NCBI GenBank assembly: GCA_947626755.1
Contig: CANQTP010000028.1
Span: 1-32,784, forward strand
DNA length: 32,784 nt
From: an uncultured Clostridia bacterium
Lineage (GTDB): Bacteria; Bacillota; Clostridia; Oscillospirales; Ruminococcaceae
Reading direction: 5' to 3'
Part shown: one piece after another, positions 30,923 to 32,784 of the stretch
Numbering within the stretch: the stretch's first letter is position 1
Layout: every line of letters starts with the position of its first letter
The notes under the pieces: model-generated
Databases searched by the model: none
What the model saw: the letters and a program-made list of their open reading frames with translations, nothing else
Told to the model about the DNA's origin: nothing
Made by a program: the position numbers and the translations under genes

Positions 30923-31088
30923 GCAGGCTGAGGCGGGGGAGCCCCCGCGGGCTTATTCAGGCAAAGTTTTGTGATTTTCAACCTAACGTATACCGTGCAT
31001 TAAGTAAAATTAGATCTGCAAAAGCATTGAGAGTTGAGAGCAAGGCTCAGCCTGCTCTCAACTCTCAACTTTCAACTCTCAACTCTCC
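30923..31088 (+). repeat. Left flank of inverted repeat around the Rpn locus
   Basis: This segment matches the reverse complement of 32475–32628 over most of its length. Shared blocks in order are CAGGCTGAG, AGGCAAAGTTTTG, ATTTTCAA, CCGTG, AGTAA, ATCTGCAAAA, TTGAGAG and the repeated CTCAACTCT tract. It contains a perfect 13-bp hairpin (31029–31041 with 31054–31066) and a palindrome GCGGGGGAGCCCCCGC. No gene is visible. Confidence 0.7.
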
Positions 31089-31090
31089 TA

Positions 31091-31119
31091 TTGCATTTTC
31101 CCAAAAACCGTGATATAAT
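31091..31119 (+). promoter_or_regulatory. Promoter of the Rpn nuclease locus
   Basis: TTGCAT (31091–31096), 17-bp spacer and TATAAT (31114–31119), 32 nt before the Rpn start. A 44-bp segment with this promoter (31088–31131) recurs at 32663–32706 with three mismatches. Confidence 0.8.
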
Positions 31120-31151
31120 ATAATTGAAAAAGTATTCAAGAGGTGATTCAG

Positions 31152-31970
31152 ATGGCAAAAGACGAGACAATGTTATCTCCAAAGCTTGATATAGTTTTCA
31201 AAATGCTGTTTGGCAACGAAAATAACAAGGACATTTTAAAGGCTTTTCTTTCGGATATGCTCGACATTCCCGAAAGTGAACTTCATAACATACGCATAAA
31301 GAATCCCGAAATTGAGCCGACAAGTATCAATGAAAAATTCTACAGACTTGACCTGAATCTCGATATAGGCGATCAGCTTGTGAATATCGAAATGCAGGTG
31401 CGTGCGGAAAAATATTACCCTGACAGGACGCTTCTCTATTGGTCGAAACTCTATTCTTCGCAGCTTGAAGAGGGAGAACCGTATAGCAAGCTGTGTCCCT
31501 GCATATCAATAAATATATTGGATTTCGTACTTTTCGGGGAACATGAAGATGTACATTCGGAATTTTCCGTGTGGGACGTGGAACACAACAAAAAACTTTC
31601 CGACAAAATGCAGATACATTTCTTTGAATTGAAAAAAGTAAAAGATGACATAGATAAAAGTAATAGGAAAAATCTTTGGTTACAGTTCATAAAATCCACA
31701 AAGAGGGAGGAGTTTGAGATGTTGAGAACAGCCGAAATGTCAGCTTTAGACAGAGCTATAGACGATCTTTACAACATGAATAATAATGAAAGATTAAAAG
31801 AGCTTGCCCGAATGCGTGAAAAAGCCATGCACGACAAAGCGTCCGAGCTGGAAGAAGCTATTCAAACCGGCAGAGCAGAGGGCAGAGCAGAAGGCAGAGC
31901 AGATTTACTTGCACTAATGGCAGCAGACGGCGTGCCGGAAGAAATTATCAGAAAATATATGCAAATATGA
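31152..31970 (+). CDS. Rpn family PD-(D/E)XK nuclease / putative transposase
   Basis: The 272-residue protein has the Rpn/PDDEXK core: KLDIVFKMLFG near the start, Asp67/Asp71 in RLDLNLDIGD and the E-x-Q pair Glu80–Gln82 in NIEMQVRAEKYYPDR. A C-terminal helical segment has Gly-Arg-Ala-Glu repeats (GRAEGRAEGRA) and ends IIRKYMQI. Such proteins are DNA nucleases tied to recombination and phage defence. A strong internal start lies at Met190. The ATG at 31152 has GAGGTG 6 nt upstream. The gene is bounded by inverted repeats and followed by two free copies of its C-terminal domain. Confidence 0.88.
   Translation: MAKDETMLSPKLDIVFKMLFGNENNKDILKAFLSDMLDIPESELHNIRIKNPEIEPTSINEKFYRLDLNLDIGDQLVNIEMQVRAEKYYPDRTLLYWSKLYSSQLEEGEPYSKLCPCISINILDFVLFGEHEDVHSEFSVWDVEHNKKLSDKMQIHFFELKKVKDDIDKSNRKNLWLQFIKSTKREEFEMLRTAEMSALDRAIDDLYNMNNNERLKELARMREKAMHDKASELEEAIQTGRAEGRAEGRADLLALMAADGVPEEIIRKYMQI
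31719..31970 (+). CDS. Predicted internal product of the Rpn gene: C-terminal domain, possible intragenic antitoxin
   Basis: Within the Rpn gene, GGAGG (31706–31710) stands 8 nt before an in-frame ATG at 31719, which would give an 83-residue product equal to residues 190–272. The same SD-ATG block (GAGGAGTTTGAGATG) starts both downstream paralogs, where it must be the true start. In enterobacterial Rpn proteins a short C-terminal product from an internal start neutralises the nuclease; the same is inferred here, not shown. Confidence 0.55.
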   Translation: MLRTAEMSALDRAIDDLYNMNNNERLKELARMREKAMHDKASELEEAIQTGRAEGRAEGRADLLALMAADGVPEEIIRKYMQI

Positions 31971-31980
31971 GGAGTTTGAG

Positions 31981-32232
31981 ATGTTGAGAACAGCCGAAAT
32001 GTCAGCGTTAGACAGAGCTATAGATGATCTTTATAATATGAATAATAATGAAAAATTAAAAGAGCTTGCCCGAATGCGTGAAAAAGCCATGCACGACAAA
32101 GCGTCCGAGCTTGAAGAAGCTATTCAAACCGGCGAAGCAAAAAAGGAAGCCGAAATGCTTGACAAAATGAAAAAATTCGGCTTATCCGATGAGGATATAA
32201 AGAAAATTTTCAATATAAAGCTACGAAAATGA
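31981..32232 (+). CDS. Free-standing Rpn C-terminal domain, copy 2 (possible antitoxin)
   Basis: The 83-residue protein repeats the start of the Rpn tail (MLRTAEMSALDRAIDDLYNM) with one Arg-to-Lys change in its first 50 residues, then has a different ending (GEAKKEAEMLDKMKKFGLSD…IKLRK). AGGAG lies 6 nt before the ATG, and the upstream stop overlaps the SD. It has no nuclease core. Confidence 0.7.
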   Translation: MLRTAEMSALDRAIDDLYNMNNNEKLKELARMREKAMHDKASELEEAIQTGEAKKEAEMLDKMKKFGLSDEDIKKIFNIKLRK

Positions 32233-32242
32233 GGAGTTTGAG

Positions 32243-32482
32243 ATGTTGAAAGAATCCGGAATGTCTGAATTAAACAAAGCCATAAACAATTTATATGACA
32301 TGAATAATAATGAAAGATTGAAAGAACTTGCCCGTATGCGAGAAAAAGCCATGCACGACAAAGCGTCCGAGCTTGAAGAAGCTATTCAAACCGGCAGAGC
32401 AGAAGGCAGAGCAGATTTACTTGCACTAATGGCAGCAGACGGCGTGCCGGAAGAAATTATCAGAAAATATATGCAGAGTTGA
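32243..32482 (+). CDS. Free-standing Rpn C-terminal domain, copy 3 (possible antitoxin)
   Basis: The 79-residue protein has a diverged start (MLKESGMSELNKAINNLYDM) but then matches the Rpn tail (ERLKELARMREKAMHDK…) and ends IIRKYMQS like the full-length protein. The same GAGGAGTTTGAG precedes its ATG, overlapping the stop of copy 2. The nuclease core is absent. Confidence 0.7.
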   Translation: MLKESGMSELNKAINNLYDMNNNERLKELARMREKAMHDKASELEEAIQTGRAEGRADLLALMAADGVPEEIIRKYMQS

Positions 32483-32628
32483 GAGTTAAGAGTTGAGAGT
32501 TGAGATATTGCAGTAACGTTTATATCTTGGCTCTCAACTTTTTGCAGATTTAATCTTACTTTATCTCACGGCAGGCAATAATTTGAAAATTTCAAAACTT
32601 TGCCTGAAAGCGTGCAGGCTCAGCCTGC
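32475..32628 (-). repeat. Right flank of inverted repeat around the Rpn locus
   Basis: Read in reverse complement it aligns with 30923–31088 in the block order given there. It starts inside the last codons of copy 3 and ends beside the terminator at 32629. Apart from this repeat, the intergenic stretch holds no gene. Confidence 0.7.
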
Positions 32629-32651: not shown

Positions 32652-32665
32652 GCAGCAGGTTTCTA

Positions 32666-32694
32666 TTGCATTTTCCCGAAAACTGTGTTATAAT
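32666..32694 (+). promoter_or_regulatory. Duplicated Rpn-type promoter
   Basis: TTGCAT (32666–32671), 17-bp spacer and TATAAT (32689–32694) lie inside a 44-bp segment 41/44 identical to the Rpn promoter segment at 31088–31131. It faces the right edge of the window. Confidence 0.75.
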
Positions 32695-32737
32695 ATAATT
32701 GAAAAAACAGGTAAAAACAAAAGAAAAAGCAAGTGAG

Positions 32738-32784
32738 ATGACCAAAAAGGCACAGCAAAACAGACCTCAGCCGAAAAAAGCTGA
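32738..32784 (+). CDS. Start of a Lys/Gln-rich protein gene (partial)
   Basis: An ATG at 32738, about 40 nt after the duplicated promoter, opens a frame MTKKAQQNRPQPKKA that runs off the window edge after 15 codons. The ribosome binding site is weak (GTGAG close to the ATG, AAAG further up). Too little is visible to assign a product. Confidence 0.4.
   Translation, partial: MTKKAQQNRPQPKKA

What the first reader, a model, noticed from the sequence alone, without database searches (positions are those of the whole stretch)
31152..32482. Rpn nuclease with intragenic start and two free-standing copies of its C-terminal domain
Seen: a strong SD (GGAGG) and in-frame ATG inside the Rpn gene at 31719, and two downstream genes that start with the same GAGGAGTTTGAGATG block and encode only that tail domain. 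Known: in enterobacteria the short C-terminal product of Rpn genes is an intragenic antitoxin. Inferred: here the antitoxin has been duplicated outside the gene, giving a toxin plus three antitoxin variants. Mosaic divergence among copies suggests evolution of specificity, perhaps against related Rpn proteins elsewhere in the genome.
Basis: partly seen in the sequence, partly recalled or inferred. Interest (0 to 1): 0.82.

Follow-up and report, generated by a model that had tools for sequence, protein, structure and literature searches.

The report
Nuclease with swappable spare tail genes
A bacterial toxin-antitoxin gene whose tail doubles as its own antidote is followed by two extra genes for differently built tails; these look like interchangeable cassettes rather than spare copies of the same antidote, which would let the bacterium change toxin and antidote in one step.

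Summary
An Rpn (PD-(D/E)XK) nuclease gene (31152-31970) has a strong in-frame internal start (31719), followed by two tail-only genes (31981-32232, 32243-32482), each with its SD overlapping the previous stop. Intragenic RpnS antitoxins and separate downstream rpnS genes are already published (Zhong et al. 2023, E. coli). What is not in the text I read is how nuclease and tail-only genes relate. Each tail is core + 4-residue repeats + cap. Tail-only genes rarely keep their parent's repeat number: 2 of 16 parsable pairs equal in this lineage, 0 of 10 distinct rpnE/ypaA pairs and 0 of 5 rpnC pairs in E. coli. Zhong et al. showed for RpnC that one extra repeat abolishes neutralisation, so the window tails are probably not extra antitoxins for this nuclease. 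Caps move between divergent Rpn families (60 of 60 nt identical in three pairs). Six of 7 fetched one-gene E. coli rpnE alleles carry the ypaA cap; one is an exact crossover product of the K-12 locus. Best reading: tail-only genes are alternative antitoxin cassettes that recombine into the nuclease, changing toxin and antitoxin together. Translation, toxicity and neutralisation are untested here.

The parts
31091..31119 (+). promoter of the nuclease gene: TTGCAT, 17-nt spacer, TATAAT, inside a motif found only at Rpn genes
   Evidence: sequence; CGTGNTATAATATAATTGA has 16 exact copies in the genome, all upstream of A- or B-type Rpn reading frames (some of them broken), control 0 (frames)
31152..31970 (+). 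RpnL, full-length Rpn nuclease, 272 aa; D13, D67, E80-x-Q82 and R92 invariant among 44 aligned sequences
   Evidence: PF12784 E 3.2e-54, TIGR01784 E 2.3e-43, invariant columns
31704..31721 (+). internal Shine-Dalgarno AGGGAGGAG and start codon ATG 31719
   Evidence: sequence; SD plus ATG conserved at this site across Rpn clusters
31719..31970 (+). intragenic RpnS-type product, 83 aa: core 51 aa, 16-residue linker, cap AADGVPEEIIRKYMQI
   Evidence: profile of relatives has RpnA-S (7TH0) as top PDB match, E 0.034
31968..31983 (+). stop/SD/start overlap TGAGGAGTTTGAGATG of the first tail-only gene
31981..32232 (+). tail-only gene 1 (T2), 83 aa: same core, 12-residue linker, different cap KKFGLSDEDIKKIFNIKLRK
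   Evidence: core has 2 synonymous and 0 nonsynonymous differences from its nearest nuclease core
32230..32245 (+). stop/SD/start overlap TGAGGAGTTTGAGATG of the second tail-only gene
32243..32482 (+). tail-only gene 2 (T3), 79 aa: diverged core, 12-residue linker, cap AADGVPEEIIRKYMQS; 60 of 60 nt around the cap identical to a nuclease of another Rpn family (contig C168)
32629..32645 (+). possible intrinsic terminator behind the array (7-bp G+C stem then T-rich)
   Evidence: consensus scan only, 2 found against 1.4 expected in shuffles

Best explanation
The locus is an Rpn toxin-antitoxin gene (nuclease RpnL; antitoxin RpnS made from the internal start in the same gene) carrying an operon-like array of two alternative, free-standing RpnS cassettes. 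Every tail is modular: a family-specific helical core, a ruler of 4-residue repeats, and an exchangeable C-terminal cap. Ruler and cap set which RpnL an RpnS can pair with (shown by others for repeat number in RpnC; inferred here for caps). The free-standing window tails are off-register for their own nuclease, so they most likely do not neutralise it; they are antitoxins of other or future tail types. Homologous recombination between tail units (by deletion within the array, or between loci) moves a cassette into the nuclease gene. Because the toxin's tail and its intragenic antitoxin are the same DNA, one event changes both and keeps them matched, and the free-standing copy supplies the fitting antitoxin at the moment of the switch. 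Shown by sequence: modularity, mismatch, cap exchange, and one exact crossover product in E. coli. Inferred: that the proteins are made here, that they neutralise, and that switching is selected (for example by phage).
For: Internal start selected at the DNA level. Tail-only genes under purifying selection: pooled dN/dS 0.115 over A-family core pairs that include a tail-only gene (pairs not independent). The 34 parsed tails of this genome keep one linker phase per family (two of the six families have one member each). Parent and tail-only linker lengths equal in 2 of 16 parsable pairs, of 21 pairs in all; 0 of 10 distinct E. coli rpnE/ypaA pairs from 15 genomes; 0 of 5 rpnC pairs. Caps shared between families whose heads are 44% identical in DNA (one pair measured): over 60 nt at the cap T3 and B-type C168 60/60, A C63 and B C168 60/60, A C142 and B C97 60/60, and, 1 kb or more from contig ends, A C161 and B C75 97%. 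C14 tail-only gene identical over 276 of 276 nt to the tail of the C73 nuclease, heads differing at 45 of 567 nt. L085: a B-type nuclease followed by an A-type tail gene. E. coli: 6 of 7 one-gene rpnE alleles (5 of 6 distinct proteins) carry the ypaA cap; the tail of L173 (an E. coli B derivative) is a 98-nt prefix of the K-12 rpnE tail plus a 116-nt suffix of K-12 ypaA covering all 174 nt without mismatch; L174 and L177 nuclease tails are aa-identical to the free tail of L167.
Against: Equal linker lengths are no rarer than random pairing gives (2 observed, 1.97 expected; rpnE 0 observed, 0.60 expected), so mismatch shows that matching is not kept, not that it is avoided; slippage in hypermutable repeats could produce it. 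One of the two equal pairs, L074, also has its parent's cap, and several tail-only genes (C14, L060, C14:18k) keep the parent's cap with another repeat number. In E. coli rpnC the free caps are close to the parent's, and three of five free linkers leave the 4-residue phase (lengths 22, 18, 20, 22, 16). Only 2 of 9 tail-only genes parsed in this genome have a same-family nuclease with equal linker length and cap class (read), and neither is a window tail. Two of 21 tail-only ORFs (L066, L070) leave the frame inside the repeats and remnants lie behind the C63, C4 and C138 nucleases, so some tails are decaying. The C73/C14 identity (318-nt exact match) and the three 60/60 cap pairs involve copies near contig ends, where misassembly is possible. 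Of the 7 one-gene E. coli alleles only L173 is fully covered by a fetched two-gene allele; the others by 69 of 225 to 166 of 174 nt, and the L173 head differs from K-12 at 9 of 729 nt. The repeat-number rule was tested by Zhong et al. only for RpnC, in another Pfam family. Tail-only genes were not found behind 24 Rpn frames of the phylum sample or 9 complete ones of the order sample, so they are not a general feature.
Confidence: 0.57

Rival explanations
1. One reading: T2 and T3 are extra antitoxins for the same nuclease, raising the antitoxin dose.
For: Same core in T2, same operon-like arrangement, T3 shares the parent's cap; YpaA/RpnES protein is made in E. coli (Zhong et al.); in L074 the tail-only gene has the parent's linker length and cap.
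Against: Linker lengths differ from the parent (16 against 12 and 12) and T2 has another cap; a one-repeat difference abolishes neutralisation in RpnC; mismatch also holds in E. coli rpnE and rpnC.
Confidence: 0.18
2. Immunity only: the free-standing tails protect against Rpn nucleases of sibling loci, other strains or incoming DNA, without serving as recombination donors.
For: C14 tail-only gene matches the C73 nuclease tail exactly; C168 tail-only gene matches the B-type C6 nuclease in length and cap class; the E. coli L167 free tail equals the L174 nuclease tail in aa.
Against: No partner for the window tails among the nucleases parsed here. A YpaA query matched 612 plasmid records, 607 of them under 60% identity; of the five closer ones, all E. 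coli, four are over 1 Mb and one of 365 kb was not inspected. The crossover product shows that exchange does happen.
Confidence: 0.15
3. Neutral debris: tandem duplication of a repeat-rich 3' end with no function, kept briefly and lost.
For: Remnants and frame-broken tails; restricted to a few lineages; many dispersed repeats around Rpn loci.
Against: Exact stop-SD-start overlap at 10 sites; cores under purifying selection; recurrence in four Rpn families of this genome and in two E. coli loci.
Confidence: 0.1

Closest known systems
E. coli rpnE-ypaA (free-standing RpnES) and rpnC with downstream rpnCS (Zhong et al. 2023, PMC10327210)
   Same: Rpn nuclease with internal start, followed by a separate gene for a tail; tails built from 4-residue repeats and a C-terminal cap.
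   Different: Here two tail-only genes in tandem with stop-SD overlap, in a Clostridia lineage with four Rpn families carrying such genes, and caps exchanged between families. The mismatch in repeat number between parent and free tail, present in E. coli too, is not mentioned in the preprint text.
Clostridioides difficile Rpn (Zhong et al. 2023)
   Same: Gram-positive Rpn gene whose internal start was shown, in E. coli, to give an RpnS.
   Different: No free-standing tail genes described for it in the text read.
Orphan immunity and toxin-tip cassettes of CDI/Rhs polymorphic toxins; HsdS subunit shuffling (both recalled, not from a call)
   Same: Works alike: alternative specificity modules stored next to the gene and recombined into it.
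   Different: No homology claimed; here toxin tail and antitoxin are one and the same DNA.

Membership tests
Rpn toxin-antitoxin family (RpnL/RpnS) | PD-(D/E)XK nuclease domain of the Rpn/YhgA-like group with catalytic residues | tested here: met
   PF12784 and TIGR01784 far above cut-off; D67, E80, Q82, R92 invariant; the spacing Q82 to R92 equals that of Q84 and R94, residues mutated in an E. coli Rpn protein by Kingston et al. (passages only) and invariant in RpnE/RpnC; profile match to RpnE/RpnC prob 79, E 1.6e-5
Rpn toxin-antitoxin family (RpnL/RpnS) | internal translation start giving a C-terminal RpnS | tested here: met
   At sequence level only: SD plus ATG at the homologous site; translation itself not testable
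Rpn toxin-antitoxin family (RpnL/RpnS) | C-terminal tail with variable number of 4-residue repeats | tested here: met
   A-family linkers of 8 to 36 residues, all multiples of 4, 14 of 14
Rpn toxin-antitoxin family (RpnL/RpnS) | RpnS folds as a dimeric three-helix bundle | tested here: inconclusive
   7TH0 (RpnA-S) is the top PDB match of the profile, but E 0.034; structure prediction never ran, queue full in 15 attempts
Rpn toxin-antitoxin family (RpnL/RpnS) | RpnL toxic, RpnS neutralises; phage defence | not testable with these tools
   needs expression and plaque assays
Free-standing RpnS with DUF4351 (PF14261) | match to PF14261 | tested here: not met
   no PF14261 match for the nuclease or any of the three tails at E up to 1
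Transposon / insertion sequence | defined ends with terminal inverted repeats shared by copies | tested here: inconclusive
   inverted repeats flank the window copy but resemble dispersed short repeats, and flanks differ among 7 A-type copies; no inverted repeat of 20 nt or more flanks the nuclease in two other loci

The most novel reading that the evidence does not exclude
Rpn loci are a diversity-generating toxin-antitoxin system: arrays of free-standing tails are a store of ready antitoxins and recombination donors, and one crossover changes toxin pairing specificity together with its antitoxin, also between distantly related Rpn families, so that new toxin specificities arise without self-killing.
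Probability: 0.35. Interest if true: 0.82.

Novelty: new variant of a known kind. Interest (0 to 1): 0.6.

Why it matters
How a toxin-antitoxin pair can change specificity without killing its host is an open question. Here the toxin's tail and its antitoxin are the same DNA, and tail-only genes with other repeat numbers and caps lie next to it. That gives a simple route for a safe one-step switch, and it is directly testable in E. coli K-12 and B, whose rpnE loci look like the before and after states of such an event. It also corrects the reading of ypaA as merely a second copy of RpnES: it differs from the RpnE tail in repeat number and cap in all 15 two-gene genomes and in L180.

Tried and rejected
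Transposon reading: flanking inverted repeats look like dispersed repeats and flanks differ among copies; dropped. Phage-borne tail-only decoys: no relative of the window nuclease in viral contigs (4 pattern matches, none confirmed); a YpaA query against 50,697 phage records gave 8 records, best 62.3%; the window nuclease gave 6 records, 43.4% or less. I did not inspect these records for free-standing tails. Known defence model: PADLOC gave only a weak GajA match to T2 (E 0.0051). PHROGs: the nuclease matches phrog_3300 'transposase' (E 5.4e-20). Structure: 15 attempts, all answered 'machine is busy', so no fold or dimer model exists. Active avoidance of matching linker lengths: not supported, observed is close to expected. 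Partner nuclease for window T2 or T3 in this genome: none among those parsed; some Rpn frames are cut by contig ends. Literature searches behind the novelty statement. Seen of the papers: Zhong et al. preprint, whole main text with legends; Kingston et al. 2017, passages; EcoSal Plus review PMC12707154, passages; the rest as listings. The published PNAS version was not held and Zhong et al.'s SI was not readable here, so the mismatch may be shown there.

Full report
WHAT IS THERE. The window ends in an Rpn nuclease gene, 31152-31970, 272 aa, followed by two small genes, 31981-32232 and 32243-32482. The nuclease matches PF12784 (E 3.2e-54) and TIGR01784 (E 2.3e-43). D13, D67, E80, Q82, R92 and W176 are invariant in 44 aligned sequences. 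The small genes repeat the nuclease's last 83 codons in a 3 x 262 nt direct repeat. Each is entered through TGAGGAGTTTGAGATG, where the stop of the preceding gene overlaps the SD.

IS THE INTERNAL START REAL. I collected 76 distinct Rpn reading frames of 100 aa or more with a complete 3' end from the window's genome, relatives in its genus, named Clostridia MAGs (isolate names 'Lapin', which suggests rabbit) and a phylum sample. Among the 64 of at least 230 aa, 35 clusters at 75% identity, 24 clusters have a 5-nt SD plus ATG within +-10 codons of the homologous site, against 6 such hits in 7592 other codons. At 40% identity, with the window family removed, it is 7 of 11 genes against 1 in 2389 codons, p 2.8e-7. 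The amino acids at the site differ between families (EEFEM, GGWNM, WEVLAM, TEGDLM), so the DNA signal rather than the protein is conserved. This agrees with the internal starts shown by Zhong et al. for five E. coli genes and one C. difficile gene.

ARE THE TAIL-ONLY GENES REAL. The exact block TGAGGARTTYGANATG occurs 10 times in the genome, behind an Rpn reading frame or at the head of a tail ORF; the one at C138 heads only a remnant (context). Nineteen of the 76 frames have at least one downstream tail-like ORF; seven of the nineteen are in this genome, in four Rpn families, and two loci (window and C14) have two. None was found behind 24 frames of the phylum sample, 21 of them 230 aa or more, or behind 9 complete frames of the order sample (12 frames found, 3 run off). 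Cores are under purifying selection: T2 has 2 synonymous and 0 nonsynonymous differences from its nearest nuclease core, and pooled dN/dS is 0.115 (pairs not independent). Not all are healthy: L066 and L070 tails leave the frame inside the repeats, L092 and L093 tails lack linker and cap, and remnants lie behind the C63, C4 and C138 nucleases.

HOW THE TAILS ARE BUILT. Each tail is a family-specific core, a linker of 4-residue repeats and a cap. In 34 parsed tails of this genome the linker length keeps one phase per family: A 14 of 14, B 14 of 14, C 2, D 2, and two families with one member each. Window nuclease: linker 16, cap AADGVPEEIIRKYMQI. T2: linker 12, cap KKFGLSDEDIKKIFNIKLRK. T3: linker 12, cap AADGVPEEIIRKYMQS.

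MISMATCH WITH THE PARENT. Of 21 parent/tail-only pairs in this lineage 16 could be parsed on both sides; 2 have equal linker lengths. L074 has the same length and cap with a different linker sequence, so it may well neutralise its parent; L068 has the same length with another linker and cap. The five left out are L066 and L070 (frame lost), the C1 tail (not parsed), and L092 and L093 (no linker). In E. coli K-12, ypaA has one 4-residue repeat more than the rpnE tail. In 15 genomes that I chose for variety (14 of the 60 listed hits, plus K-12) there are 10 distinct rpnE/ypaA linker pairs and none is equal; the parent cap is always of the LTDADIPN kind and the free cap always of the SEADLAANNH kind. 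One of the 15, L160, is annotated as a pseudogene; its pair recurs in the intact L168. A sixteenth two-gene genome, L180, has 42 against 14. For rpnC, 5 of 5 pairs differ in length (24/22, 28/18, 12/20, 36/22, 32/16); there the free caps stay close to the parent's, three of five free linkers leave the 4-residue phase, and in L182 the nuclease is split by IS1. Chance pairing would give a similar number of equal pairs (1.97 of 16; 0.60 of 10), so the result is that matching is not maintained. Zhong et al. report that only RpnCS with the same repeat number blocks RpnCL (Fig. 4D legend). Applied here, an inference, T2 and T3 should not neutralise the window nuclease.

EXCHANGE. One A and one B nuclease compared share 44% DNA identity in head and in core, yet over 60 nt at the cap three cross-family pairs are identical, including T3 with a B-type nuclease, and a pair 1 kb or more from contig ends (A C161, B C75) is 97% identical. 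A tail-only gene at C14 equals the C73 nuclease tail over 276 nt while the heads differ at 45 of 567 nt; this lies near a contig end and could be misassembly. In L085 a B-type nuclease is followed by an A-type tail gene. In E. coli, 60 rows spread evenly over 5,371 matching genomes fall into 34 two-gene and 26 one-gene rows by listed features. Of 7 one-gene alleles fetched, 6 (5 distinct proteins) carry the ypaA cap on the RpnE head and one (L179) another cap. The tail of an E. coli B derivative (L173) is the K-12 rpnE tail joined to the K-12 ypaA end, 98-nt prefix and 116-nt suffix covering 174 nt without mismatch, with identical downstream sequence over 40 nt; its head differs from K-12 at 9 of 729 nt. 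The other six are not fully covered by any fetched two-gene allele (69 of 225 to 166 of 174 nt). The simplest account of L173 is a deletion between the two tail units.

MODEL. One recombination between tail units replaces the nuclease's tail and its intragenic antitoxin together, and the free-standing copy provides the antitoxin for the new type beforehand. The steps shown are sequence-level; neutralisation and selection are inferred. For the window tails themselves no matching nuclease was found among those parsed; only 2 of 9 parsed tail-only genes in this genome have a same-family nuclease of equal linker length and cap class. That weakens a pure immunity reading and is why confidence stays moderate.

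KNOWN AND NEW. Rpn toxin-antitoxin systems, intragenic RpnS, separate downstream rpnS genes, repeat-number variation, and fusion or loss of rpnS are in Zhong et al. (preprint main text read in full; SI not read; PNAS version not held). I found no statement there that free-standing tails are mismatched to their parents, that caps move between Rpn families, or that one-gene alleles carry the free cap, and the searches listed no other paper on the subject that I recognised. Family membership is well supported by sequence; the RpnS fold is only suggested, 7TH0 being the top PDB match at E 0.034; structure prediction could not be run.

Noticed in passing
window 31109-31127 and 15 other places in the genome: The motif CGTGNTATAATATAATTGA has 16 exact copies in the genome, all just upstream of Rpn frames of two divergent families, with none in the control: a promoter module that seems private to Rpn genes.
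   Followed up: partly
window 32663-32784: A 93% copy of the Rpn promoter lies behind the tail array, before sequence running off the contig; that sequence holds a 28-nt repeat found at the ends of several other contigs.
   Followed up: partly
window 32009-32037: A near-consensus promoter-like site (TAGACA-17-TATAAT, 11 of 12) lies inside T2 and could drive T3; unit 1 has TACAAC at the corresponding place. Six such sites were found against 4.0 expected in shuffles.
   Followed up: no
window 31020-31087 and 32475-32545: Dispersed short repeats (GAGAGTT heptamers and others) surround this and other Rpn loci in both orientations.
   Followed up: no
L092 3888 onward, L093 3840 onward: Two other Clostridia MAGs have a downstream tail-like ORF that lacks the repeat linker and cap altogether.
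   Followed up: no
contig C40 15141-15458 (L055): A differently built Rpn-like tail carries the same kind of repeats and a related cap (80% DNA identity at best), so cap sharing may reach beyond the A and B families.
   Followed up: no
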